Positions 2,976-15,974 of a stretch of 20,596 bases of DNA are shown one piece after another. Numbering within the stretch: position 1 is the stretch's first letter; each line of letters opens with the position of its first letter. The notes beneath the pieces were generated by a model. The model did no database searches. It saw nothing but the letters and a program-made list of their open reading frames with translations, and was not told where the DNA came from. The stretch lies in assembly GCA_017453765.1 (NCBI GenBank), contig JAFTEG010000168.1:1-20596 (forward strand). Direction: 5' to 3'. The position numbers were made by a program, and so were the translations under genes. Origin of the DNA: Selenomonadaceae bacterium (GTDB lineage Bacteria; Bacillota; Negativicutes; Selenomonadales; Selenomonadaceae).

Positions 2976-3001
2976 CAATGCACTTAAGCAATGCACTTAA
3001 T
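2976..3001. repeat. 13-bp tandem duplication over the desulfurase stop codon
   Basis: Two adjacent copies, CAATGCACTTAAG (2976-2988) and CAATGCACTTAAT (2989-3001), are identical at 12 of 13 positions. The stop codon of the desulfurase (2984-2986) lies inside the first copy. A further partial copy (GCACTTAATGA) is nearby at 2957-2967. Confidence 0.75.
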
Positions 3002-4132
3002 CAACTGCTTGCCGATAATCTCCGCGTCTTCATATGAATTTTCTCTGCCGAAAGTAATTCGTACCGTCCCGCGAATGTAATTCGGATTGACGGATAAAGC
3101 TTGAAGTACGTGAGAAATTTGTACTTGCCGCGAATTGCAAGCCGAGCCGGTTGACACGCAAATATTTTTCAAGTCAAGCCTATGCATAATCGTTTCACCG
3201 TCACCATTTTTAAATGACAAACTTAAGTGACCGGGCAGACGATTTTCACCGCCGTTTATTATGAAGTCGACGTTACTTTTTTTCAGCGTGTCGATTAAAA
3301 TTTTTGCGCAGTCAGAAGTTTTGGCGGCATTAATCTCAATGTCGCGGCAATTTTTTTCAAGCGCAAGAGCCATTGCCGCGACAGCCGGTACGTTTTCAGT
3401 TCCCGCACGCCGTGAAAATTCCTGCGCGCCGCCGTCAATGTACGGCAAAATTTTTAAACCTGCGCGAATGTAAATAAAGCCGATACCCTTTGGACCGTTG
3501 AACTTATGCGCGGAAGCGGAAAGCATATCGACGTTTAAATCTTTCACGTCAACCGGAATGTGACCGACCGCCTGAACTGCGTCCGTGTGAAAAATTTTTC
3601 CCGCCGCGTGAGAAATTTCTGCCAACGCTTTAACCGGTTGAATGGTACCGACTTCGTTATGGGCAAGCATCACGGAAATTATTTTTGTCTGAGGCAAAAT
3701 TTTTTCCTGCAACTCGGCAGGATTTACGGCGCCGCTTTTATCGACTGCCAACTTTGTCACGGTGCAACCTAATTTTTCCATAGCCGCGCAGGAATTTAAA
3801 ATCGCCTTATGCTCAACGGCAGAAGTAATTATATTCGGCTGTTCGCGCAGATTTGAAAGTACCTCCCGCAGATTTGAAAGTACCGCCGACTTTATAGCCC
3901 AGTTATCACTTTCCGTGCCGCAGGACGTAAAAATAATTTCATTCGGCGCGGCGTTAATGCAGGCGGCAATTTTTTCACGTGATTCGTGCAGAATTTTTTT
4001 TAGCGGTCGCGAAAGTTTGTAAGCCGCAGAAGGATTCGCATAAAGATTTTTCTGCAGGTCGAACATCAATTCCAATGCGTCAGCGTCAATCGGTGTAGTT
4101 GCCGCGTTGTCAGCGTAGATAATCTTATTCAA
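2984..4132 (-). CDS. Cysteine desulfurase, NifS/IscS family
   Basis: This PLP-dependent class-V aminotransferase-fold enzyme removes sulfur from cysteine and carries it as a persulfide for Fe-S cluster, tRNA or other thiolation. The 382-residue length is typical. Visible landmarks are the N-terminal YADNAATTP, the SCGTESDN and HNEVGT segments, the HTDAVQAVG motif, the PLP lysine in SASAHKFNGPKG, GGAQEFSRRAGTEN, and the catalytic cysteine in CVSTGSACNS near the C-terminus. Start is TTG at 4132 with AGGTG upstream. It follows a zinc-ribbon gene by 48 nt and lies downstream of the BREX-4 operon on the same strand, so it could act as a DndA-like sulfur donor for BrxP. It could equally be the cell's ordinary desulfurase; no scaffold (IscU/NifU) gene is visible. 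An in-frame heptapeptide duplication (VLSNLRE/VLSNLRE) occurs about residues 83-96. Confidence 0.93.
   Translation of the reverse strand: MNKIIYADNAATTPIDADALELMFDLQKNLYANPSAAYKLSRPLKKILHESREKIAACINAAPNEIIFTSCGTESDNWAIKSAVLSNLREVLSNLREQPNIITSAVEHKAILNSCAAMEKLGCTVTKLAVDKSGAVNPAELQEKILPQTKIISVMLAHNEVGTIQPVKALAEISHAAGKIFHTDAVQAVGHIPVDVKDLNVDMLSASAHKFNGPKGIGFIYIRAGLKILPYIDGGAQEFSRRAGTENVPAVAAMALALEKNCRDIEINAAKTSDCAKILIDTLKKSNVDFIINGGENRLPGHLSLSFKNGDGETIMHRLDLKNICVSTGSACNSRQVQISHVLQALSVNPNYIRGTVRITFGRENSYEDAEIIGKQLIKCIA
3846..3884. repeat. 21-bp in-frame tandem duplication inside the desulfurase gene
   Basis: The 18-mer CGCAGATTTGAAAGTACC occurs at 3846-3863 and again at 3867-3884, a 21-nt period. 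On the coding strand it produces SNLREVLSNLRE, so the frame is kept. It sits in a segment before the TSAVEHKA region and adds seven residues compared with a single-copy version. Confidence 0.85.
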
Positions 4133-4195
4133 AGAGTTTCACCTATTCAAAATTATTCAACCTTAGTCAAAGATTAAAACTTATTCAAAGAGTTT
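4125..4195. repeat. 15-bp repeat shared by a gene end and the next gene start
   Basis: TTATTCAAAGAGTTT occurs at 4125-4139 and 4181-4195, a 56-nt offset. The right copy encodes the last codons and stop of the zinc-ribbon gene (KLFE-stop). The left copy encodes the TTG start region of the desulfurase. The spacer holds further degenerate TTCAA units. Confidence 0.7.
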
Positions 4196-4387
4196 ACAGC
4201 CGCCATTTTTAAAATCCTCAATCTTATCCAAAATATCTTGCGGCTCGACTTCCAAAAAATTCGCCAAACAATCAATGCAATAAAAATTCTTAGACTTCGC
4301 GCCTAAGAGTTTTTTTGTTATGCCGACTTCATTTTTGGCAAGCGGACTCTTGCCGCAGGAAGTGCAGTGAAAAATTTTTTTTGCCAA
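4181..4387 (-). CDS. Small zinc-ribbon protein of unknown function
   Basis: The 68-residue protein has two CXXC knuckles: CTSC near residue 8 and CIDC near residue 37. These should bind one zinc or iron in a rubredoxin/zinc-ribbon fold. A C-terminal acidic helix follows (VEPQDILDKIEDFKNGGCKLFE). I cannot assign a role; similar short proteins occur in Firmicutes without characterised function. Start is TTG at 4387, chosen because TGAGGT lies 7 nt upstream and no ATG exists in frame. It is placed 98 nt after brxL and 48 nt before the cysteine desulfurase, on the same strand. A metal- or sulfur-handling partner of the desulfurase is possible but is inference. Confidence 0.8.
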   Translation of the reverse strand: MAKKIFHCTSCGKSPLAKNEVGITKKLLGAKSKNFYCIDCLANFLEVEPQDILDKIEDFKNGGCKLFE

Positions 4388-4485: not shown

Positions 4486-5925
4486 TCAAATGACTTCAAA
4501 TTTCGGAATATCCTTGCCTTTGTACTCGACATCAAGCAGGGCAAGCTGTTTTCTTATGGTGTCACGCATTTTGCAGGCGCGATCAAGACAATAAATTTTA
4601 AAAAGCTCCTTGTCAACGTCATCAGCGCTTTTAACGTGCGGAAAAAATAATTTCAAGTACGCCGTAGCAATTCGCTTAATCGCGGCAGTATCGCGCGTAT
4701 CGGCTCTTTCCGGCACTTTAACCAGCTTGTCGACAATCGCGCGGTAGCTGATATCTTCGCGCAGTTCGTGCAGGATTGAACAAAAATATTCAGAGTTCAG
4801 CGCCCAGCCGCAAACTTTCATATCGTCATTCATTCTCGGAATGTTCCAGCCCTTTATAAAGCCGTGAAAGCGTTCAATCAGCGCCGATTCGTGAAAAACC
4901 TGCGGCAGTTCGTAAAACATATTTTCAGCGCCGTCAGTGTCCATTATCGCCTTTGAAATGTTGCCGCTTAAAATTACGCCTGCATCGGCATTGTTGGAGT
5001 GGTTGCCGACCGTGTAGACGCCGTTTTCCAAAAATCCCTTCAACGCCGCGCGCATTTCGTCAGTATCCTTGAAAGAAATCGTCTGCACTTCGTCAAGCGT
5101 CACGAAGTCATTGTAGGCGACAAGACCTTCCTGCCGTTTTTGCATATCGTAAAACATCTTCGCACGGCTCATAATGCCGCCGCTTGAAAGCCAGCCGAAT
5201 CTGCTTACGCGACCGAAGACGTACGATTTACCGGTACCTTTCGGCGCAAGCTCAATTAAGTTCAATCGCTTTTCGACAAAAGGTAAAAGACGCGTCAACA
5301 TTGTAAGCTTTTCTTCTTCACGTTCATAACCTGCCGCGTTGTAGTCGATAGCACCGAGAAGAATTTTCAGCCATTCATCAAGTGAAAAATTTTTCCGCGC
5401 CTCTTTGTAAAAGTCAAGATTAATTTTGTAAGGACAGAAATTTTTAAACTTCATCAGGCGAATTTTGCCGGGAATTTTAGGTTTAGCGTCGTAGTCAGGC
5501 GGTCGGTAACCTAACTGAATCATTCCCCAAACTTCGTGCCCGCCGGTCAACTCATCTTTGCAACTTTGCCAAACGTGATCTTCAATCATTGTTTCTTTGG
5601 CGGAAAGTCCGAAATCCGGCAGTGAAAATGACACGGAGCCGTTAGCAATGTCAATTTCGATTGAAACTTTCGCCAAAAGTTTTACGTGTTCATTGTCCAT
5701 AACGATTCGACTTTTTATCGTTTTCCAATCGTCTTTTTTCGGAATGAACTGCCGCACGAAATTTGAAAGTTCCTCTGCATCAAACTTGCCGTCGTCATCT
5801 TCAAAGCGCCGTAAAAGCCAATCGCGCATAAATGAAGGCAGACTCAACGCGTTAAAAAAGTTATTGTTCTTTAAATCTTTGTAAACAATCATATCTGAAA
5901 AAATTTTTTTCAATTTATTTTCCAT
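4486..5925 (-). CDS. brxL: BREX AAA+ ATPase BrxL (short form)
   Basis: The 479-residue protein is the last BREX gene. BrxL proteins are ring-forming AAA+ ATPases that bind DNA and are needed for phage exclusion. Visible here: Walker A APKGTGKS (227-234), Walker B FVTLDE (about 274-279), a sensor-1-like LSGN (319-322), and a candidate arginine finger in ALIERFHGF (348-356). The N-terminal 200 residues contain PSFMRDWLL and IPKKDDWKTIKSRI, typical of the BrxL N-terminal region. Length is well below the roughly 680 residues of BREX-1 BrxL, so the Lon-protease-like C-terminal domain appears absent. The end looks natural, not truncated. The ATG at 5925 has CCGGAG 6 nt upstream and lies 12 nt after the pglZ stop. 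Confidence in the family is high; the details of its action in type 4 are not established by this sequence. Confidence 0.88.
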   Translation of the reverse strand: MENKLKKIFSDMIVYKDLKNNNFFNALSLPSFMRDWLLRRFEDDDGKFDAEELSNFVRQFIPKKDDWKTIKSRIVMDNEHVKLLAKVSIEIDIANGSVSFSLPDFGLSAKETMIEDHVWQSCKDELTGGHEVWGMIQLGYRPPDYDAKPKIPGKIRLMKFKNFCPYKINLDFYKEARKNFSLDEWLKILLGAIDYNAAGYEREEEKLTMLTRLLPFVEKRLNLIELAPKGTGKSYVFGRVSRFGWLSSGGIMSRAKMFYDMQKRQEGLVAYNDFVTLDEVQTISFKDTDEMRAALKGFLENGVYTVGNHSNNADAGVILSGNISKAIMDTDGAENMFYELPQVFHESALIERFHGFIKGWNIPRMNDDMKVCGWALNSEYFCSILHELREDISYRAIVDKLVKVPERADTRDTAAIKRIATAYLKLFFPHVKSADDVDKELFKIYCLDRACKMRDTIRKQLALLDVEYKGKDIPKFEVI

Positions 5926-5937
5926 GACTTACTCCGG

Positions 5938-7959
5938 TTATTTAAAAAAGTCAAAACTGTCATCTTCTTCAATAAGCGGCGCGGAAGGTTTTTCGTTAGA
6001 CTTGGACGGTTTTTCATCAGGCGTGAAAGGTTTTTCATCAGATTCAACGTTATTTTCAGCGTTGGTATTTTTTGAATTTATATTTGACGAATTGATATTT
6101 TCAATTTCCGAGTTTGTATTTTCAAAGTCAGTAGCACGCAGTGAAAATTCAATTACCGGCACCAAAATTTCTTCAAGCGTCGCACCGCCGTGAACTTCCA
6201 CTGACGCTAATCTTCCGCCTGCAAATCTGTCATAATTTGCCAAAACCCAGTAGCCGTTTTCTTCCGTCGCGCAGTTTGGCTTTTTGTCCAATTCATTTAC
6301 AAGACAGCAACGTCCCGAATGTTCACCGGCAGAGTTCATTTTAAATTTATTTTCGCGCCCATACATAACGGCAAGGCGGCTGGCACCGTGATCCGAAGTC
6401 AAAATAATTTTCGCAACGTCACGGCTCAGCAAGGACGTTTGAATTTCCAAAAGTACTTTATCAATAATGTCAAGTTCATCATCAATGTAAGTCGGCGCAG
6501 AGCATTTACCGTCCGCAGAAAATTTTTCAGGCGAATGTTTCAGCTCATCCAACTTTGAATTTTTTTCAAACTTTTCACCGTGCCACTCGTCATAAAAATT
6601 TTTATTTGTAGAAGTAAGCGTCGGCAAAACTGCGCGGGCAATTTCAATTTTTACGGCAAGTCCAAAACTTTCGGCGCGGGATTTAATGTAGCCTAAAAAT
6701 TCAACGCCGAGCGCGTCAAGCCAGTACAGTTTAGCATTTTTATTCGCGCTGTCCAAAATTTTTTGCCGCGTATCAAATTTATTGTACGGTCGGTCAAGCG
6801 CAATTTCCTTCACGTGCAGTTTAAATTCTTCGTCATCAACATTGCAAAGTTTAATCTTTTTGTAACGCCGAAAATAATTTGTAATGTCCGCGTCGCCGAA
6901 GTCGTAGTCAGTCAAATAATATTTCATCGCCGAATAATTTTTTATGAATACGTCGGGAATTTTTTCCTTGCCTTGAATAAACTTAATCATTGCGCGGCGC
7001 TCATCGGCAGTGTTGTCAGTCAAATACTTCACGGCGTCCGAAACATTTTCAAGCTGCTTAAGATACTCGTCAATATATTGTGACGAAATATTTTTAACGG
7101 CGGCTTTTCTAAGCGAATAAAATTCTTCAAAAATATTTACGGCTTTAACGTCAAGCAACGCGAAAAATAAATTTCGGCGATACTCTTCATAACTTGCCGA
7201 ATGCGAAAAGACAAAATGTAAGTACGCGTCAACAATTTTATTTTTAAAACCCGCCGCAAAAGTGCGCCAATGTTCCGGCGGGTAACCGTCACAATTTTCG
7301 TCAAAAAAATACTCCTGCCACTGCGAATTATTCAGCGCGTCAGGAGAAACATTTAAATTCGGTTCGCGATACTTTATCGCGGCGTAAGCGTCATTAATAT
7401 TTTTCACGTTCAAAAGCGGCAATTCGGATTTCACGCTGACATTTTCCCTGCCGCGTTCAACAAGTTTAAGAAGTTCGGAAAAATTCTGCGCGTCCGTGTC
7501 GACATTAAAACTTGGATTATATTTTACAATGGAAAAATTCACCGTGCCGCCGATTTTGCAAAGGTAATTCGCGGCGAATTTAACATCTTCCGTCGCAAGC
7601 TGTTCCATAAAATTCGTGATACTTCTGCAAAAAAAAATAACCTTGCTATGAAAACTTCGGTCCTGCAACATTCGCAAAACATTTTCATAGCCGGTGAAGT
7701 AAATATATTCGCCTAAGCCGAAACAAAGCGCGTTTTGGTCAAGCAAATTTAACTTTTCAATAAATAAATCTGCGTCAAGCGTAAAATCTTCCGTGCATTC
7801 GTCCGAAATATAAATCTGCTTGAAGTCCTTGCCCAAAATTTTTGTAAGCTTTTTGCATTCCGCCATACCGTCCGCAATGACAAAGTACGGTTGGAGCGTG
7901 TCACGTTTCAGGTAATTTTGAATTTTTTTCGCGGCATCGTCAATGCTTAAAGTCTGCAT
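5938..7959 (-). CDS. pglZ: BREX phosphatase-fold protein PglZ (type 4)
   Basis: PglZ is the signature BREX component, with an alkaline-phosphatase-like fold. The 673-residue protein has an N-terminal PYFVIADGMAEC segment. Near residues 516-525 is IILTSDHG, matching the metal-binding TSDHG of the fold. It is followed by VEVHGGATLEEILVPVIEF (about 587-604), the usual PglZ end. After this comes an Asn/Ser-rich linker, three 7-residue repeats (DEKPFTP-like) and an acidic tail DDSFDFFK. The frame extends to TTG 7965, but ATG 7959 is the better start: GGGAGG lies 7 nt upstream of it and would be only 1-2 nt from the TTG. The brxC stop is 2 nt upstream, so translation is probably coupled. Its size fits type 4 PglZ better than the longer BREX-1 form. 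Confidence 0.9.
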   Translation of the reverse strand: MQTLSIDDAAKKIQNYLKRDTLQPYFVIADGMAECKKLTKILGKDFKQIYISDECTEDFTLDADLFIEKLNLLDQNALCFGLGEYIYFTGYENVLRMLQDRSFHSKVIFFCRSITNFMEQLATEDVKFAANYLCKIGGTVNFSIVKYNPSFNVDTDAQNFSELLKLVERGRENVSVKSELPLLNVKNINDAYAAIKYREPNLNVSPDALNNSQWQEYFFDENCDGYPPEHWRTFAAGFKNKIVDAYLHFVFSHSASYEEYRRNLFFALLDVKAVNIFEEFYSLRKAAVKNISSQYIDEYLKQLENVSDAVKYLTDNTADERRAMIKFIQGKEKIPDVFIKNYSAMKYYLTDYDFGDADITNYFRRYKKIKLCNVDDEEFKLHVKEIALDRPYNKFDTRQKILDSANKNAKLYWLDALGVEFLGYIKSRAESFGLAVKIEIARAVLPTLTSTNKNFYDEWHGEKFEKNSKLDELKHSPEKFSADGKCSAPTYIDDELDIIDKVLLEIQTSLLSRDVAKIILTSDHGASRLAVMYGRENKFKMNSAGEHSGRCCLVNELDKKPNCATEENGYWVLANYDRFAGGRLASVEVHGGATLEEILVPVIEFSLRATDFENTNSEIENINSSNINSKNTNAENNVESDEKPFTPDEKPSKSNEKPSAPLIEEDDSFDFFK
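5980..6042. repeat. Three 21-bp repeats encoding the PglZ C-terminal tail
   Basis: Coding-strand translation gives SDEKPFT, PDEKPSK and SNEKPSA in succession, a heptapeptide minisatellite. The EKP core is invariant and the flanks vary. On the plus strand GGTTTTTC recurs every 21 nt. Confidence 0.85.
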
Positions 7960-7961
7960 GG

Positions 7962-10900
7962 TCAATCCTCCCGTAACAGATTAATTCCGACTTCGTAATT
8001 TTTGTCCAGCAATTTCATTAAAAGTTCTTTTGCCTCTTTATCGGACATACGCTGTACCTTTGCAGAGACCTTGTCATAAGCGCCGCCGCTGTAATATTTA
8101 TTTCTTGCAAACTCCTCGACAACTTCATTAACTCGCGTATTTGAATACCATTCGTAGGCGTCGACATTAAGTTTTGATTCCAATTCGTTGCGAACCTCAT
8201 TGTTATTGTCAAGCAAGCCGCGATACTTGGCGGTAATTGCTTTTGTAAATGCGTCTTCAATTTTTTGCGTGTCATTCAGCGCGGAAAAATATTTGGGACG
8301 TTTTTTAAGATATTCAATCGCAAATTGCACGTCTGTTTCTGCAGGAGACATTGCCATAATCGTTTCAAAAACTTTTTTTGCGGCTGACTTCTCCGCCTTA
8401 GGCACCATTGCTAAAATCGGCGTACGGTTGGACTTCGACCATTCACGCGGCAATTTGTTTCCGGCAACTTCGCGCCACAAATTCACAAGCTCATTTTTCA
8501 GCCGTCCGCCTTTTTCATTTTTAATCAAGCCGTCCAACTTTTTGAAAAAACTTCCGTGATTATCGGTAAAAGAAGATATCGGCAGTTTATCATAAACATT
8601 ATTAATTTCTTCTTCACTCAAACCGGTTAAGTTATATGCAAATTTATCACGCAACATTCTAATCTGCGCGGAAAATGCGTCGGCAATTATCGCGGCATCT
8701 TCTGTAAGGTAACGTAAAAATTTTTCACGGCTACTTTGCGGAAGGTCATTTTTCAAACAAATATCATTTAACATTGAAAAAAAATCTCTCAACTGCGGAT
8801 AATAATCGCTGATTATGACGTTGGGAATTTTCATATTAAATTGGCAATGATTTTTCCAAGCGGCAAGGCAGGCAGTAAAAGATTTGCCGTCTATGCCGAA
8901 TTTTGAACTTTCAATAATAATTTTGTAGTCGACGATTAAATTTTTTAAAACTTCAATCGACGTTTCTTTATCGTGCAACCAAATGCTGTCGCCTGCAGTT
9001 ACGCTCCTTTGACATTCCGCCACTACATTTTCAATGCCGATTTTCTGCGCCAATTCAAAAAAAATACCGCCTTCAAAACTTTTCAGAAAGTCTGCAAAAA
9101 TTTTTTCGCCGGTTTTCTCTGTAAGAAAAATTTTTAAATCGTGAAAAGCTTCCGGCGTACTCATCAAAAACTTGCCTGCACCTTCCGCCAATGGCGAAAT
9201 GGCAACCGCTTGCTTGGAGTTGGCAATTTCCATTAAAAGCTTTAAAAAGTCTGCGTACTTTTCATCTGCCACGTCAGCGTAGCACCAAAGGGGATAATTC
9301 AACGTTATCATTTTCAGGCGAAGTGTTTGCGCACTTTGTTCAACCGAAATATCTTCCCGCACGTTAAAAATTTCAGCCGCAAATTCCATGAACCGCCGCT
9401 GATTCTGTGACATTATCTCAATGTACTTGGGGCGATAATTTCTAATCGGCGTGTCAGAATTATTTTTGAAACTGTCATTTATGCATTCAGCCAACTTTTG
9501 AACCGTCATCGCGCCGCCCAAATTGCCGTCAGTTCCCACACTGAATCGGTAGGGGTCGCCTGCATATTCTTTCAGCAAAAAGCCGGTCACGTACGCATAA
9601 ACATTCAGCGGCATAAACCCGCGTTCAAATAAAAATGCCACGATATCATCAAATGCAATTCGGATATTTTTGGCAAGTTCATTTTTTATCAGCGTGTCGA
9701 GTTCAATTTTCAGCCGTGAAATATTTATATCGGGATAAATTTTCCAATACTTGCCGGACATTTTCCATATATCGCCGAAAATAATTTTAGCATTTTTCTC
9801 CGTCATCATAGAAACCGTTGTCTGCTCAATGCCGGCTTCAGCCATTACCTTAAGCTTGAGAGATTGAAAAAGCGTACCCGTAATATCGGCGGCGTCAAAT
9901 GAATACGGATAAAAATGTCGCACGTTGTCCGTCATTTCTGCTTTGACTTTTTTGGCACTTTGACACGAAATGCCTTTACGCGGCTCATCTTCATTTTTCA
10001 CGGCGGGATAGTAAACATATGAACCGTTTTCAAAAGTTGCCTTCCAATCATTCAAACGGTCAGCGGCGGAAGTTTTCATCTTTTCGGCAAGAGGATTGTC
10101 CTTGCCGCGCCAATATATTTCATTCGCGGCGGAATCAACCCAGCTTTTGAAAAGTTCGCTGTTCATCAAATTTGACGACGCATCGATAAATACAAGTTTA
10201 TGATAGCGCGAATTGCCGACCGCCTCGCCGATAAGGTTATAAAGCTTACTGTGTTCAGCCTCGTTTCGCGCAAAACATACCACAGCTTTTATGTGATAAT
10301 CTTCCTTTTCATTGGTAAGGCGGTTAATCGTCAGCGTAAAATTATCGGCAGTCACGGCGGTCAACACGTAGCGCGCACTGTGAACCGTGTCCATCTCTAT
10401 CACCGAAAGTAAATTGCCGTCTCTTACAAGCTCGGCAGTCTTTACATTATCGGCAACTTTCTGTTTATGATTTTCAATCTCCGCCAAATCACCGCTGATT
10501 GACATTGTTGCGAAAGTTACGATTTTACCCGGACGATTGAAGAGAATCTCTTTTTTAACCAATTCATTTGCTATTTGAACTGCGCGGTTTTCAAACCTGC
10601 CGTCACCTTTAAATGCCAGCTCCAAATTTTCTTTCGTAGGCTTAAAAAGTTCAATACCTTCATGCGTACCGGTATCTATTGCCTGAAAAAGCAACACCGT
10701 CTTTAAAACGGCTTGTTCCTCCGGACTCAAACTATCCTTGCAAGTTACGTACGAATCGAGAATCGCGCGAACTTGCGGCTTTAAATTCATTCTGCCGACA
10801 CTGCCGCCGTGTTCGTCCGTGCCGCTGTCATAAAAAAAATCCCAAAGATAATCTACCGTCAAAACTTTGCCGTCAAGCGGACTGTTATGCGTGATAAAAT

Positions 10901-11588
10901 CTTGGAATGCTTTTATACTCGGATCATTATTCTTAATGAAATTAAAAATACTGCGCTGATTCGAGGAGAAGTACGACGCCAAACTTTTAAGCATAATTGC
11001 GGCTACAGGGTGAATCGGCAAAATCGCCGTTAAAATGTTTTCATTGTTAATATGAGTAAATTCCATAACGGCTTTGCGCGGCTTTTCCGTACGTTTCTTC
11101 AGCGTGGCGGAAATGCGTTCCCATTCACCTCGCGCGGCAGATTTTACTTTCAGCGCATGTCCGATAAGTTCAAAGGCTATGTTATTTGGCAACGTAATAT
11201 TTGAATGGATAAATCTGTCACGTAAAATTTTAAAGCCTTTATCGCCTTCAGCTACAAGACTTCCTGTTTCGTGCGTCGCAATGACAAGGTAAAACGGCGC
11301 TATGTTCGTAAGCTCTGCAAGGCGTTGAAATTCATCGAAGTTATTGCGGTTATTAAAGAAGAATTTTGAAATCTCGTCCCAAAACAAAATCAGCGCGCCC
11401 AATTTATTTTCCGCTATTACTTCCGTTATCCAATCTATCAAATCGCTCATATTTATGTTGAACGCGCGAATACCTTCTTTTTCGCCGAGCTTTAATATTT
11501 CCTCTACCAGCTGGGACACTTCCGCCTGCGGATTTTTCAGCCGCTCTATTATCAATTCCGCGCTTTTATTCGCTAAACTTGCCGACAT
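7962..11588 (-). CDS. brxC: BREX ATPase BrxC/PglY, C-terminal part (frame-shifted from its N-terminus)
   Basis: This 1208-residue frame is the bulk of the giant P-loop ATPase BrxC/PglY. Near its start it has the Walker B strand LILFWDE (66-72), then segments typical of large BREX ATPases, ending KLLDKNYEVGINLLRED. It lacks Walker A, which lies in the separate upstream frame. The frame is open further upstream without a stop to 11687, reading RRKDPARKIVSWLES and so on. That looks like genuine protein and continues the N-terminal frame. ATG 11588 has only a weak GGA 8 nt upstream, so independent initiation is doubtful. I read the two frames as one ~1,397-residue gene (7962-12154) broken by a one-base shift. 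The TGA at 7964-7962 is 2 nt from the pglZ ATG. If the break is real, this fragment cannot hydrolyse ATP on its own. Confidence 0.85.
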   Translation of the reverse strand: MSASLANKSAELIIERLKNPQAEVSQLVEEILKLGEKEGIRAFNINMSDLIDWITEVIAENKLGALILFWDEISKFFFNNRNNFDEFQRLAELTNIAPFYLVIATHETGSLVAEGDKGFKILRDRFIHSNITLPNNIAFELIGHALKVKSAARGEWERISATLKKRTEKPRKAVMEFTHINNENILTAILPIHPVAAIMLKSLASYFSSNQRSIFNFIKNNDPSIKAFQDFITHNSPLDGKVLTVDYLWDFFYDSGTDEHGGSVGRMNLKPQVRAILDSYVTCKDSLSPEEQAVLKTVLLFQAIDTGTHEGIELFKPTKENLELAFKGDGRFENRAVQIANELVKKEILFNRPGKIVTFATMSISGDLAEIENHKQKVADNVKTAELVRDGNLLSVIEMDTVHSARYVLTAVTADNFTLTINRLTNEKEDYHIKAVVCFARNEAEHSKLYNLIGEAVGNSRYHKLVFIDASSNLMNSELFKSWVDSAANEIYWRGKDNPLAEKMKTSAADRLNDWKATFENGSYVYYPAVKNEDEPRKGISCQSAKKVKAEMTDNVRHFYPYSFDAADITGTLFQSLKLKVMAEAGIEQTTVSMMTEKNAKIIFGDIWKMSGKYWKIYPDINISRLKIELDTLIKNELAKNIRIAFDDIVAFLFERGFMPLNVYAYVTGFLLKEYAGDPYRFSVGTDGNLGGAMTVQKLAECINDSFKNNSDTPIRNYRPKYIEIMSQNQRRFMEFAAEIFNVREDISVEQSAQTLRLKMITLNYPLWCYADVADEKYADFLKLLMEIANSKQAVAISPLAEGAGKFLMSTPEAFHDLKIFLTEKTGEKIFADFLKSFEGGIFFELAQKIGIENVVAECQRSVTAGDSIWLHDKETSIEVLKNLIVDYKIIIESSKFGIDGKSFTACLAAWKNHCQFNMKIPNVIISDYYPQLRDFFSMLNDICLKNDLPQSSREKFLRYLTEDAAIIADAFSAQIRMLRDKFAYNLTGLSEEEINNVYDKLPISSFTDNHGSFFKKLDGLIKNEKGGRLKNELVNLWREVAGNKLPREWSKSNRTPILAMVPKAEKSAAKKVFETIMAMSPAETDVQFAIEYLKKRPKYFSALNDTQKIEDAFTKAITAKYRGLLDNNNEVRNELESKLNVDAYEWYSNTRVNEVVEEFARNKYYSGGAYDKVSAKVQRMSDKEAKELLMKLLDKNYEVGINLLRED

Positions 11589-11656
11589 TCTATATTCCGG
11601 CTTTTTTATTTTTGCACGGAATAACTCTAAATTTGCCGCGTCCGACTCAAGCCAGC

Positions 11657-12154
11657 TTACGATTTTCCGCGCAGGGTCTTTGCGCCGTCAAATTTACAGC
11701 CGCTCTTTTTCAGCGCCGCCGTCAAACTTTCATATACCGCGAAAATTAATTTCTGCGTTGACGTGATATCGCCCGTCGCATAACGCCGCGCCGTCACGAT
11801 TTTATTTTTTCGCGCCGCACGTAACCTTTCTCGCAGATCCGTTTCCTTCTGCAATTTTTCGTACTCTTCAAAGTACGCGTCAAATTCTTTTTCAGGACAC
11901 GTCAAAAGTTTTTGCACCATCCACAAAACCCGCGATTTTCCCGTGCCGTACGCGCCCTCTACCCATACGCTTTTTTTATCCTCTCGCGACAATGCACGCT
12001 CCAAATCTTTTAAAAGCGTTACTATCGTGCCGTGCGGGTACGTGCTTTGCCATTTGTTTTTCGGGTCTTTTATCGAGCTTTCATTTATCTCCGGATAATA
12101 GCCTTCGTCTATCTCAAAATATTCCGCGTACGACCTTGAATCTAATGTCCCCAC
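11657..12154 (-). CDS. brxC: BREX ATPase BrxC/PglY, N-terminal part with Walker A
   Basis: This 165-residue frame starts with GTG at 12154, preceded by AGGAAG at a 7-nt spacing. It lies 11 nt after the brxP stop. Residues 1-60 resemble the N-terminus of BREX P-loop proteins (YFEIDEGYYPEINESS, then a TLLKDLERAL helix). Walker A GAYGTGKS is at 67-74. The frame ends at TAA 11659-11657 shortly after CKFDGAK. The other frame, open from 11687 down, resumes with KDPARKIVSWLE. The Walker B partner is encoded there, so the two halves only make an ATPase if the frames are joined. Confidence 0.85.
   Translation of the reverse strand: MGTLDSRSYAEYFEIDEGYYPEINESSIKDPKNKWQSTYPHGTIVTLLKDLERALSREDKKSVWVEGAYGTGKSRVLWMVQKLLTCPEKEFDAYFEEYEKLQKETDLRERLRAARKNKIVTARRYATGDITSTQKLIFAVYESLTAALKKSGCKFDGAKTLRGKS
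11660..11687 (-). other. brxC: Reading-frame break in brxC
   Basis: Between the TGA that closes the downstream frame (11690-11688) and the TAA that closes the upstream frame (11659-11657), both frames are open. The gene must change frame by -1 somewhere in this 28-nt stretch. A likely join is GCA-AAG in the first frame to AAA-GAC in the second (near 11678-11682), which one extra A would restore. No canonical X XXY YYZ slippery heptamer is evident. It may be a mutation, an assembly error or a phase switch. Confidence 0.8.
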
Positions 12155-12165
12155 AACTTCACTTC

Positions 12166-14451
12166 CTAACTGTCAAATAATTTTAATACGTCCTGCGATG
12201 TCTTGTCTGAAAACAGCGATATCTTTTCTAAATCGTGCGTGAAACTCGCGTTGATAAATTGCGGATACTTCGTCGAAAGTCCGTTTAACCACTGCTCCAT
12301 TTCCTCTTTGTCTATGCCGAAAATTTTTGTAGGACTCACCCCCGCCGATGCCTCATTGTTCATCATTCGCGTTAAGTTGAATTGATACCAATCTGCCGCC
12401 TCCGCCAATTTGTACAGCGCGTACAATATTACTCTTCCGTCGTCCACTCGCGCTTTTGTTCGCGTCAACGTCGCAAGGTTTTTGCCGTCCGATGTCGTAG
12501 TACCGAAATGCAGGGACGTTCCCAGCGGCGTTTCACAAAGTCGCTTATAAGCTCCCGGTATAGTCGTTAAACCTTGTCCTTTAACTTCTTCCATTTTCAA
12601 TTTTTCTTCGATAACTGCGCGGTCAATACTTCTATTAAGCGGCAAATTATCGACGTACCAGCGTATTTGCGGATTGTTGTAAACCAAATTTATATAAATC
12701 AATCCCCATGCCGTTGGAGACTCCCAGCCGATTTTTTTTATAAGTGCGGTAAATTCGGTAGGAATTTTTGTTTTCTTGTCTACAAATTCGGCGTCATAAA
12801 GAAAGCGTTTAAAGAAATCAAATTGCTTGCTACCAAGAGTATTTTTTTGCATAAAAGTTTCTGTATTATAAAAAAATTCTCTGAACCATTCAGGTTTTGG
12901 TGCATGTCCTGCAAAAGTATTTAAGTTTTGCTTCAAGCTCATTTCTCCTTCCAACGGCAATACAATCGCGTGATATAAAAGACAGCCTCTGTCAATCTCA
13001 TGGCATTGCAAACAGTGAATGCATTTTTTTTTATCAATGTGAAAGCCGTCTTTAAAAGATATAGCGCCTTGCCTGCAATTTGATTCACATACGCCGCAAC
13101 CTACGCAAGCCGCCGCCTTGTGAAAAACTGATTTAAAAATTCTCATTGCAGGCGTTTTGTCATAAACGGTTTTAACTTTCGCTGTAACAGTTTTATTTCC
13201 CGACTCTATGCTTTCTTCAACTGCGTACGGAAAAGGAAATCCTATCGCGGTTTTAAACCATTCCAGCCAGTTTGTTTTGGGATTTGTAACGGTAATGTAC
13301 AAGTAATCATTTGAAATTTCTTCGCTGTAATTTGTCAAAGGATTTTTTAAATCTCTGCCGTTTTTACGATTATTCCAGCCGCCGTTATCTATGTATGAAA
13401 TGATATCTTCATCGGTGATATTTTCTTTGATTAAATCAGCAAATTTGTCAACTTCATCGGGGTAGGCATTGCGCCGAAAAAAATTTGCCCTGCCGCTAGA
13501 CATAGGACAAAGCAGACAACCTGCGCGGGAATTGCCTTTTTTGTAAGTTTCATTAATCGGCAAACCGTACATAAAAATATACTGCCAAATTTCGGCGGAT
13601 CCCCATTCAAGTATGGTATTTTGAGAATGTTGACCGCGCTGTTTCATACCGACGTTTTCAACTTCGTAATCTGCGCGTTTAACACTTTCAGCGGCACGAA
13701 CGCCGACAAAATCAACACCGACGTAATCAGTCTTGCCCAAAATTTCGCGAATCTTCAAAGTTTGCGGGGCGGCCTTATGAACGGAGCAACACCAGCGCAA
13801 AACGGTAGAAGGGGGACCAAAAATTTTCCAGCTATCTTCCGGCAAAAGGTGAGAGGCGGCGCGATAAAATTCAATGCCTTCGTCTTTGCACTGCTTTTCA
13901 ACGAGATCGACAATTTTGTAAGTATCGGGAAATTCCATGCGCGTATCACCGAACACGACGATAAAGGCGGACTTAGGCAAAGCGTGCTTGACTAAATCCA
14001 GCAAGACAATAGAATCCTTGCCGCCGCTGAAAGCCACGTGAAAACAGTCAAGGCGCTTTTTCATACGCGTCCAGTAGTTGAAAATGCGCTTAATGGTAGC
14101 TTGACGTAGATTTTCCATAAGCTCGAAATTTTTTTTTGACATAGCGGCAATGTCAATCGGCAAAATCGTTTCACCTTCGGGCAAGCCGTCTTCCTCGACA
14201 AACTCAAGCGTAGGCTTTTCATAAAGCGAACCGCCTTTAACTACGGCGATTAGTTTAGCGCGGTAAAAATAATTTCCCGCGACAGCCCAAAGGTACGGGA
14301 TATCATTTTGGTTATCGTAATGCCAACGCCGATTAAAGCCGAGAATATTCATTTCTTCGGCAAAAACCGGACGCGGCTCTTTGGGCATTTTTTCATCTGA
14401 ATTAGTCAACAAAATGCCGCCGGTATCTGAATCAAATTCATACTTGTACAT
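12166..14451 (-). CDS. brxP: BREX-4 PAPS-reductase-like protein BrxP with ferredoxin domain
   Basis: The 761-residue protein belongs to the PP-loop ATP pyrophosphatase/PAPS-reductase superfamily, the same as DndC. It has SGGKDS at 142-147, VFGDTRMEFPDT (167-177), a WCCSVHK segment with C221 and C222, and RAGCLLCPMSSGR with C312 and C315; these cysteines could ligate an Fe-S cluster as in DndC. Residues 449-490 form a two-cluster ferredoxin module: C449-X2-C452-X2-C455-X3-C459 and C477-X2-C480-X2-C483-X6-C490. BrxP replaces the methyltransferase PglX in BREX type 4, suggesting sulfur-based rather than methyl-based DNA marking. Start ATG 14451 has only a weak ribosome site. Its frame is open back to the preceding gene's TGA, 36 nt upstream. 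It ends 11 nt before brxC. Family call is strong; the chemistry is inferred from homology. Confidence 0.9.
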   Translation of the reverse strand: MYKYEFDSDTGGILLTNSDEKMPKEPRPVFAEEMNILGFNRRWHYDNQNDIPYLWAVAGNYFYRAKLIAVVKGGSLYEKPTLEFVEEDGLPEGETILPIDIAAMSKKNFELMENLRQATIKRIFNYWTRMKKRLDCFHVAFSGGKDSIVLLDLVKHALPKSAFIVVFGDTRMEFPDTYKIVDLVEKQCKDEGIEFYRAASHLLPEDSWKIFGPPSTVLRWCCSVHKAAPQTLKIREILGKTDYVGVDFVGVRAAESVKRADYEVENVGMKQRGQHSQNTILEWGSAEIWQYIFMYGLPINETYKKGNSRAGCLLCPMSSGRANFFRRNAYPDEVDKFADLIKENITDEDIISYIDNGGWNNRKNGRDLKNPLTNYSEEISNDYLYITVTNPKTNWLEWFKTAIGFPFPYAVEESIESGNKTVTAKVKTVYDKTPAMRIFKSVFHKAAACVGCGVCESNCRQGAISFKDGFHIDKKKCIHCLQCHEIDRGCLLYHAIVLPLEGEMSLKQNLNTFAGHAPKPEWFREFFYNTETFMQKNTLGSKQFDFFKRFLYDAEFVDKKTKIPTEFTALIKKIGWESPTAWGLIYINLVYNNPQIRWYVDNLPLNRSIDRAVIEEKLKMEEVKGQGLTTIPGAYKRLCETPLGTSLHFGTTTSDGKNLATLTRTKARVDDGRVILYALYKLAEAADWYQFNLTRMMNNEASAGVSPTKIFGIDKEEMEQWLNGLSTKYPQFINASFTHDLEKISLFSDKTSQDVLKLFDS

Positions 14452-14487
14452 AATGCTAAAAAATTCTATGTCAAGTGCGATAATCCT

Positions 14488-15873
14488 TCAAATTTTTTCA
14501 GAAACTTCATACGCGCGGGCAATAATTCTTTCTGTGACTTTATCAATGCGATTGACGCGGTAGCCTTGAGAGACTAAAAATTCAGCGACGATATCTTTTT
14601 CCAATTTAATTTTGTCCTGCAGTACGGCGTGAGCTTGAAGGTCGAGGTAGTCTTTAAACTTCATAGACTTAGGGTAAATGGCACCGGCGCTTGCATTATT
14701 AAAATCGGAAGAGGCATAAACGTACTTTTGGCTGTACTTGCGCAAGAAACTTTCCAGCAAGAACAAATTCCAAGTGTAGCCGTCAACCGGCGGAAAACCG
14801 GTAAAACTTGTGACGGCGCGCAGAGGAATGATTTTGCCCTGCACAAAGGGCGTCAGTGCGGCGTCAATGCCGGCAACGTCGAAATGTATCAGCGCGTCTT
14901 TAACAAACAAGTTTTTATCGACGCGGCTCATCTGCTCGTAGGCAGAACGTAATGCGATAACGTAACCGGTAATATTTAATTTTTCAGAGTAAGCAAACAG
15001 CTCCGTGACGGTCATTTCTTGTTTCGGGCTGATAAAATCGCGCAGAAGAGCCATAGCGCCTTTGGCATTGGCATTAGCGTCACTTTTGGCGAAAAGTTTT
15101 TTGCGGCGCTTGGTAAAAAGTTTGTCGAAAAATTTGGCGTGAATGAAGTCGCGTAAAATATTTTCGTCAACTTCAGAATTAAGCGCAAAGTTTGAGTACA
15201 AGTCGTAGTCATCAATTTCGGCGTGACCTTTTTTCTTAATGCAGGCAGATATCTGATTAATTGCGGCGTTAATCTCGTCCGTGTCGAATTTAATTTTGGA
15301 AATGGGAATGAACTTGCCGTTAAGTGCAGGCAAATATTTTTTCGTGTCGGTGAGAATGGCAGAAATTTTTTCGGCGGGAACGTAGGACAAAGTTTTTTGC
15401 AAGTCATCAATCGACAGCGCGGAAGGCGCCTTCATAAAAATTTTGGCAATCTCGTAGTCAAGGCGCGTCATCAAACTCACGGCAAAAAATTCGTCAAAAT
15501 AAAAGTTACCGTCGCCAACCGTCTGCAGAAATTTTTTTAACACGTCGGGCGAAAAAATATTTAAGGCGGTGAAAAAATCTGCGTGCTTTTCGTAAACGGC
15601 GGCGTAATAGGCGATGGGAGTAGTCTCCAAAATTTTTTGCGCTAACGATTGAATTTTTTCAATGTCAGTTTCTGAAATGAAAAAAAACTTTCCGCCGTCC
15701 TCAACGCCTTTTTCTTGAATGACGTCAGAAATTAAATCGCGCACAATATTTTCGGCGCTGTTTTCTGCCGCGTAAATGCGAAAAATTTTGTTGATGTCGA
15801 TAAAGTCATTTCTTATGCCGTTGGGAAAATTGGCGGTTATAATTTCAATAATTTTTTGAGTGACGTTTTGCAT
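14488..15873 (-). CDS. Unrecognised first gene of the BREX-4 operon
   Basis: I do not recognise this 461-residue soluble protein. It has no signal, membrane segment, Walker motif, methyltransferase motif or nuclease signature that I can see. The N-terminus (about 1-75) looks like a winged-helix unit: three helices then the hairpin GVEDGGKFFFIS. Two later segments (about 175-245 and 280-340) are helical and Lys/Asp-rich, so tandem DNA-binding helical domains are possible. The C-terminal end is also helical (DKIKLEKDIVAEFLVSQGY). It has a strong ribosome site (AAGGAGGG, 5 nt from ATG 15873) and lies 36 nt upstream of brxP, in frame with it. Its position as leader gene implies an operon function such as DNA recognition, control of transcription, or a missing enzymatic partner. 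This is not a standard annotated type 4 component as far as I know. Confidence 0.8.
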   Translation of the reverse strand: MQNVTQKIIEIITANFPNGIRNDFIDINKIFRIYAAENSAENIVRDLISDVIQEKGVEDGGKFFFISETDIEKIQSLAQKILETTPIAYYAAVYEKHADFFTALNIFSPDVLKKFLQTVGDGNFYFDEFFAVSLMTRLDYEIAKIFMKAPSALSIDDLQKTLSYVPAEKISAILTDTKKYLPALNGKFIPISKIKFDTDEINAAINQISACIKKKGHAEIDDYDLYSNFALNSEVDENILRDFIHAKFFDKLFTKRRKKLFAKSDANANAKGAMALLRDFISPKQEMTVTELFAYSEKLNITGYVIALRSAYEQMSRVDKNLFVKDALIHFDVAGIDAALTPFVQGKIIPLRAVTSFTGFPPVDGYTWNLFLLESFLRKYSQKYVYASSDFNNASAGAIYPKSMKFKDYLDLQAHAVLQDKIKLEKDIVAEFLVSQGYRVNRIDKVTERIIARAYEVSEKI

Positions 15874-15911
15874 ATGTACCCTCCTTATCAGCGTGCAGGC
15901 AGTTTATAGAC

Positions 15912-15974
15912 TAAGCGGGTGTAGGTTTATAGACTAAGCGGTTTTAAATTTTAAATTTAAGCAGTTTTAAATTT
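15912..15974. repeat. 23-bp period repeat from MCP stop to BREX leader
   Basis: TAAGCGG begins at 15912 and 15935, and TAAGCAG at 15958, so three units have a 23-nt period. Units 2 and 3 share TAAGC.GTTTTAAATTT. The 17-mer GTTTATAGACTAAGCGG is exactly repeated at 15902-15918 and 15925-15941. Unit 3 contains the MCP stop codon (15959-15957). Confidence 0.8.
15926..15954 (-). promoter_or_regulatory. Candidate promoter of the BREX-4 operon
   Basis: On the minus strand TTAAAA (15954-15949) and TATAAA (15931-15926) are 17 nt apart and end about 53 nt before the first BREX start codon. Because of the 23-nt repeat another TATAAA occurs at 15908-15903. The -35 and -10 matches are only moderate, and read-through from the MCP gene is equally possible. 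Confidence 0.28.

What the first reader, a model, noticed from the sequence alone, without database searches (positions are those of the whole stretch)
4486..15873. Complete-looking BREX type 4 operon that marks DNA without a methyltransferase
The order brxP, brxC, pglZ, brxL with no pglX matches the published definition of BREX type 4, one of the least studied BREX types. The gene in the methyltransferase slot carries SGGKDS and DndC-like cysteines, so self/non-self marking may rest on sulfur chemistry. Family assignment comes from visible motifs; the modification chemistry is inference.
Basis: partly seen in the sequence, partly recalled or inferred. Interest (0 to 1): 0.7.

Follow-up and report, generated by a model that had tools for sequence, protein, structure and literature searches.

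The report
Sulfur-marking BREX operon with extra gene
A rumen bacterium carries a known kind of anti-virus gene cluster thought to mark its own DNA with sulfur, but one core gene is broken in this sequence, and the cluster begins with an unnamed DNA-binding-like gene that recurs in many related clusters.

Summary
Sulfur (phosphorothioate, PT) marking by this type is already reported (PMC11931770 passage; PMC12839542 section 34), so that idea is not new.

Three corrections. (1) "Complete-looking" is wrong: brxC is split by a frame break near 11,660-11,670, parting Walker A from Walker B; 63 other loci carry both sides in one ORF. Assembly error and real loss cannot be told apart. (2) The operon runs on to a zinc-ribbon-like ORF (4181-4387) and a BREX-linked cysteine desulfurase (2984-4132). 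(3) The first gene (14488-15873) is a predicted multi-winged-helix protein without a Pfam, NCBIfam or PADLOC match, not named in the type-4 section I read. A relative lies directly upstream of brxP in 47 of 50 brxP-fetched loci and upstream in 9 of 16 BREX-4 genomes among 398 sampled; of 8 strong hits in those 398, 7 are upstream of brxP and 1 ends at a contig end. It is the fastest-evolving operon protein. I propose a DNA-binding sensor or regulator; that function is inference.

The parts
14488..15873 (-). Unnamed first gene, 461 aa: predicted multi-winged-helix protein, relative found upstream of brxP in many BREX-4 loci
   Evidence: no Pfam, NCBIfam or PADLOC match
12166..14451 (-). brxP: PP-loop/PAPS-reductase-type protein with ferredoxin-like cysteines and a BREX-specific C-terminal part
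   Evidence: PADLOC BrxP 770 bits; PF01507 92 bits; invariant cysteines
11657..12154 (-). brxC, 5' piece, with Walker A
   Evidence: PADLOC BrxC 141 bits, profile positions 2-146 of 1376; motif
7962..11588 (-). brxC, 3' piece, with Walker B-like motif
   Evidence: PADLOC BrxC 627 bits, profile positions 184-1372; motif
11660..11670 (-). Frame break inside brxC (frame -1 to frame -3)
   Evidence: tblastn of 5 relatives' BrxC; 63 other loci carry both sides in one ORF
5938..7965 (-). pglZ of the BREX-4 type
   Evidence: NF033445 322.9 bits, cut-off 140
4486..5925 (-). brxL
   Evidence: TIGR02688 422.9 bits, cut-off 329.3
4181..4387 (-). Small zinc-ribbon-like ORF, 68 aa, CxxC...CxxC; probably the small zinc-finger protein described for type 4 (my identification)
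   Evidence: found after brxL in 36 of 57 loci where at least 300 bases beyond brxL are visible; no Pfam or NCBIfam match
2984..4132 (-). Cysteine desulfurase linked to BREX-4
   Evidence: PF00266 247.6 bits, PADLOC DndA 396.6 bits; linkage to brxP

Best explanation
This is a BREX type 4 phage-defence operon in a rumen-type Selenomonadaceae genome. By homology, the cysteine desulfurase supplies sulfur; BrxP, an ATP-using PP-loop enzyme, with BrxC places phosphorothioate at chosen sites and so marks self DNA; PglZ and BrxL act against unmarked invading DNA. The first gene encodes a modular multi-winged-helix protein that most likely binds DNA for the system, as a sensor or specificity subunit or as the operon's regulator. 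Shown here: gene content, order, conservation, the frame break in brxC, the predicted fold and the recurrent linkage of the first gene. Taken from published work on the type: PT chemistry and defence. Inferred by me: the role of the winged-helix protein. As sequenced, brxC is broken, so this copy may not work.
Against: brxC is split here. The winged-helix gene is missing from 7 of 16 BREX-4 genomes in the 398-genome sample, three of them visibly decayed, and from the archaeal plasmid locus L062. The desulfurase follows brxL in only 3 of 13 loci of the phylum sample with room to see it, the window included. No tool here can show PT, defence or DNA binding. pTM 0.53 leaves the domain arrangement uncertain. 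The fold matches are to generic winged-helix proteins.
Confidence: 0.8

Rival explanations
1. The locus is a decayed, non-functional BREX-4 operon: brxC is truly disrupted, so modification and defence are lost in this host.
For: One frame change separates Walker A from Walker B. Other assemblies also show broken BREX-4 genes: brxC in two ORFs in L102 and L113 (at other places), brxP in pieces in L116.
Against: Every other operon gene is open and keeps its motifs. The genome is a 431-contig, 69%-complete assembly, so a one-base assembly or sequencing error is plausible.
Confidence: 0.35
2. The winged-helix protein is only a transcriptional regulator of the operon, comparable in role to BrxR-type regulators of type I BREX (recalled; PMC9122589 seen only as a search listing), and takes no part in marking or attack.
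For: It is the first gene of the operon; winged-helix proteins are often regulators; a small tandem repeat lies just upstream.
Against: Its size, up to 1,225 aa in the full-length relatives, its five or more units and its swapped N-terminal modules are unusual for a simple repressor. The tandem repeat is not found in other fetched loci.
Confidence: 0.4
3. The PP-loop gene is a housekeeping sulfate-assimilation reductase that happens to sit beside defence genes.
For: The PP-loop domain matches PF01507.
Against: cysH 44.9 bits against a cut-off of 165.1; PADLOC BrxP 770 bits over the whole protein; the order with brxC, pglZ and brxL recurs across the fetched loci.
Confidence: 0.01

Closest known systems
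BREX type 4 (brxPCZL), as described in PMC12839542 section 34 (read) and cited as Yuan et al., Nat Commun 2026;17:1717 (not held, not read)
   Same: brxP, brxC, pglZ and brxL in order, no pglX, plus a cysteine desulfurase and a small zinc-finger-like ORF
   Different: brxC is split in this sequence; the operon starts with a winged-helix gene that section 34 does not mention
Ssp system (SspBCD with SspE or SspFGH)
   Same: BrxP and BrxC give secondary matches to SspD (47.8 bits) and SspC (up to 53.1 bits)
   Different: BrxP and BrxC models score far higher (770 and 627 bits), and the operon has pglZ and brxL
Dnd system (DndABCDE)
   Same: PP-loop sulfurtransferase-type protein and a DndA-like desulfurase
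   Different: DndC scores 20.5 bits against a cut-off of 290.4; no DndB, DndD or DndE match among the window proteins scanned
BrxA / SspB / DndG multi-wHTH DNA-binding proteins (for the first gene)
   Same: Arrays of winged-helix domains in BREX or PT systems (as described in PMC12839542 and PMC10853773, passages)
   Different: No PADLOC match of the first gene to any such family; its profile does not match BrxP, which carries the DUF4007-like part (hhalign 1.6%, E 0.031)

Membership tests
BREX type 4 | PAPS-reductase-type BrxP in place of a methyltransferase | tested here: met
   PADLOC BrxP 770 bits; no methyltransferase match in the window proteins scanned
BREX type 4 | brxC gene between brxP and pglZ | tested here: met
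   Both pieces match the same BrxC model, PDLC02485
BREX type 4 | PglZ of the BREX-4 type | tested here: met
   NF033445 322.9 bits, cut-off 140
BREX type 4 | BrxL | tested here: met
   TIGR02688 422.9 bits, cut-off 329.3
BREX type 4 | DUF4007 part, often fused to BrxP | tested here: inconclusive
   PF13182 17.4 bits, below its cut-off of 27, at residues 659-757
BREX type 4 | Phosphorothioate in host DNA dependent on the locus | not testable with these tools
   Needs LC-MS/MS or PT-seq
Intact, working BREX type 4 system | All core genes open | tested here: not met
   brxC frame break as sequenced; assembly error not excluded
Ssp system | SspD and SspC as best match | tested here: not met
   BrxP and BrxC models score far higher
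Dnd system | DndC equivalog | tested here: not met
   TIGR03183 20.5 bits, cut-off 290.4
BrxA/SspB/DndG triple-wHTH family (for gene 14488-15873) | Profile or fold match to those proteins | tested here: inconclusive
   No PADLOC match; fold searches list generic winged-helix proteins in the rows shown

The most novel reading that the evidence does not exclude
BREX type 4 has an overlooked, fast-evolving component encoded ahead of brxP: a modular multi-winged-helix protein. Its conserved C-terminal domain docks to the complex, and its winged-helix array, often with swapped N-terminal DNA-binding modules (sigma-70 region 4, integrase SAM-like, HARE-HTH), reads incoming DNA and decides which DNA is marked or attacked.
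Probability: 0.35. Interest if true: 0.7.

Novelty: new member of a known kind. Interest (0 to 1): 0.45.

Why it matters
PT-based BREX is known, but the sections I read do not settle what in type 4 reads the invading DNA. A recurrent, modular DNA-binding-like gene at the head of the operon gives a candidate that one deletion could test. It would also help annotation: among the 120 listed relatives the only names given are 'hypothetical protein', so current type-4 models may stop one gene short. The frame break in brxC warns against treating this contig as a working system.

Tried and rejected
Housekeeping PAPS reductase for BrxP: rejected by profile scores.

Upstream genes of the more distant BREX-4 loci as unrelated fillers: rejected for four of them. 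Family A3 (L137/L138 type) matches A1 at hhalign E 5.4e-12 over 290 columns, and A4 (L112/L115 type) at 1e-7 over 236 columns. Controls against A1: reversed A3 and A4 gave E 0.7 and 0.26, and five other operon proteins 0.031 to 0.4. No control with an unrelated multi-winged-helix family was run. A3 and A4 match each other only weakly (E 3.6e-4, 36.6%), and A3 against BrxP gave 0.0068. Single sequences gave less: L112 E 2.6e-4, L115 E 0.07. The sigma-70-like genes of L108 and L116 do not match A1 and are not counted as members.

Names for the first gene: a PADLOC MzaA match (E 7.7e-6 to 2e-4) in three long relatives (L104, L117, L136) covers only about 35-54 residues at the sigma-70 region 4 part and is not taken as kinship. 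The best PHROGs match has E 0.047.

A3 searched in 398 genomes gave no hit; the tool notes that an empty answer without a positive control shows nothing.

Tandem 23-nt repeat 15902-15947 as a conserved operator: its 16-base core is found in none of the 142 loci then held except three that come from the window itself.

Invertible segment in L018: the inverted arms found near its edges are AT-rich and imperfect; no clear recombination site.

Full report
WHAT IS THERE. The minus strand carries, in order, an unnamed gene (14488-15873), brxP (12166-14451), brxC (split: 11657-12154 and 7962-11588), pglZ (5938-7965), brxL (4486-5925), a 68-aa zinc-ribbon-like ORF (4181-4387) and a cysteine desulfurase (2984-4132). 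From the first gene to brxL the genes lie at most 36 bases apart or overlap. PADLOC, NCBIfam and Pfam profiles identify the core: BrxP 770 bits, BREX-4 PglZ 322.9 bits (cut-off 140), BrxL 422.9 bits (cut-off 329.3), and BrxC in two pieces. The window lies in a 2.09-Mb, 431-contig genome assembly, 69% complete. The closest named relatives by brxP are rumen and gut Selenomonadales and Selenomonadaceae assemblies.

THE CHEMISTRY IS ALREADY IN PRINT. [quoted passage not shown] PMC12839542 (abstract, section 34, part of section 35, and passages) treats type 4 as the PT-based BREX, adds a cysteine desulfurase in 255 of 457 taxa and a small zinc-finger protein often found with it, and says its PAPS reductase lacks a cysteine dyad unique to DndC. 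The primary paper (Yuan et al., Nat Commun 2026;17:1717) is not held; I saw its title in reference lists. In this window 13 of 15 BrxP cysteines are present in 49 of 49 aligned proteins (the window's and 48 from the fetched loci), 8 of them in the ferredoxin-like region.

BRXC IS BROKEN HERE. Five relatives' BrxC proteins align in frame -1 up to 11663 and in frame -3 from 11666. Walker A falls on one ORF and the Walker B-like motif on the other. In one search, 63 other loci carried both sides of this point in one ORF, and the window was the only locus where both sides were found on different ORFs. Seven further ORFs matched one side only: L051 and L057 are cut by contig ends, L111 starts late, and L062, L109, L115 and L138 were not recognised on the other side. 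Three loci repeat another (L010/L024, L017/L131 and L045/L053 have identical brxP). Open copies exist in the same genus (L131, L132). Breaks of brxC at other places occur in L102 and L113. Error and real loss cannot be told apart.

THE DESULFURASE BELONGS TO THE OPERON. In 61 genomes of the family, 20 match BrxP; 8 have a full-length BREX-4-type brxP, the window's included (9 loci), and the other 12 have partial matches of at most 122 bits. Seven of the 8 carry a desulfurase at least 49% identical to the window's (the window itself counted) on the brxP contig; the eighth, G427, has a 38% relative beside brxL. None of the other 53 genomes reaches 49% over full length: the best is 45%, and a 157-residue match in G399 has 52%. 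Fisher p is 1.8e-8, uncorrected for relatedness and counting the window. In the 50 brxP-fetched loci it follows brxL in 29 of 32 where at least 1 kb beyond brxL is visible; in the phylum sample in 3 of 13, the window included. So it is common but not universal.

THE UNNAMED FIRST GENE. It has no match in Pfam, NCBIfam or PADLOC. A search of 5.8 billion proteins gave 179 matches, itself included; of the 120 listed, 5 bear a name, each 'hypothetical protein'. A relative lies directly upstream of brxP on the same strand in 47 of 50 GTDB loci that were fetched by brxP similarity. The exceptions are L020 (gene elsewhere in the locus, inverted), L023 (none in 1.6 kb) and L043 (contig starts inside brxP).

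LESS BIASED TEST. In 398 genomes of the phylum, 34 match the BrxP profile at 1e-30. I counted 16 as BREX-4-type: 15 with a match of 686 bits or more from profile position 1 or 2, and G285 in pieces. I dropped 18 whose matches start at positions 15-24 and score 250-336 bits; I looked at 3 of them (L119-L121), which have no pglZ or brxL match in the stretch fetched. For G173, which has two brxP, one locus was used. Of the 16, 9 have a member of profile A1 or A4 upstream of brxP and 7 do not; in L104 another ORF lies between. Of the 7, L108 and L116 have a sigma-70-like gene in that slot and L114 a shorter one, and L111, L114 and L116 are visibly decayed.

SPECIFICITY. A1 gives 9 of 398 genomes: 8 strong hits (8.9e-38 or better) and one weak, G131 at 4.3e-6. 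Seven of the 8 lie upstream of brxP; the eighth, G265, ends 175 bases before its contig does. A4 gives 4 of 398 genomes, all upstream of brxP: two are genes that A1 also hits, and the other two (L112, L115) are rows of A4 and so count by construction. Counting A1 and A4 together, 10 genomes have a strong hit and 9 of them have brxP beside it; Fisher p 1.8e-13, uncorrected for relatedness. The G131 hit lies beside a helicase and an SMC-like ATPase, not BREX. In the 61-genome family sample all 9 BREX-4 loci have a member: 7 by A1 and 2 (L137, L138) that are rows of A3 and are linked to A1 by profile comparison. One of the 9, L131, is the same contig as L017. In G418 the gene is in two ORFs, with a Fic-family gene between it and brxP.

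MODULARITY AND PACE. Relatives reach 1,000 aa and more with extra N-terminal parts: sigma-70 region 4 in L104, L117 and L136, and an integrase SAM-like domain in L110 and, below its cut-off, in L050; HARE-HTH in L112 of the A4 group. Other long relatives scanned had no domain above its cut-off. Among the Selenomonadaceae-type loci the protein is the least conserved of the operon: median identity to the window 54.8% (n=18), against brxC 62.1 (18), pglZ 64.4 (17), brxP 69.8 (19), desulfurase 75.5 (13) and brxL 86.4 (12). Its C-terminal domain is its most conserved part (mean 66% to the window), the fifth unit the least (43%). This suits a recognition component with a fixed docking domain, but also a regulator.

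NOVELTY. The locus is a member of a known kind. The first gene is not named in the type-4 section of PMC12839542 or in the passages I read. Supplements and Yuan et al. were not available, and paper searches listed no other paper that I recognised as describing it. I therefore claim only that it is unlisted in what I could read.

Noticed in passing
window 15902-15947: Two tandem 23-nt copies (87% alike) between the upstream chemotaxis gene and the first operon gene; their core is not found in other fetched loci.
   Followed up: partly
window 5983-6045: Three tandem 21-nt copies near the 3' end of pglZ, coding a repetitive linker.
   Followed up: no
L108:14627-16108, L116:3978-5423, L114:15390-16031: Sigma-70-like gene just upstream of brxP in some distant BREX-4 loci; the first two are 75% identical, the third is a shorter relative.
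   Followed up: partly
L018:15455-17114: The first 270 codons of brxL lie on the opposite strand, as if a segment spanning the pglZ-brxL junction had been inverted.
   Followed up: partly
L020:18450-21023: The winged-helix gene lies inverted beyond the desulfurase, the desulfurase is in two frames and no brxL was recognised.
   Followed up: no
L118:8041-15246 (G131): A 958-aa protein with helix-hairpin-helix and, just below their cut-offs, RNA polymerase alpha-CTD-like and sigma region 4-like matches, and a partial match to A1, beside a helicase and an SMC-like ATPase.
   Followed up: no
L056:3-8075: A 2,690-aa open frame whose end matches the winged-helix family, directly ahead of a brxP cut by the contig end.
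   Followed up: no
L131 and L136 (genome G446): One genome of the window's genus carries two BREX-4 loci of different branches.
   Followed up: no
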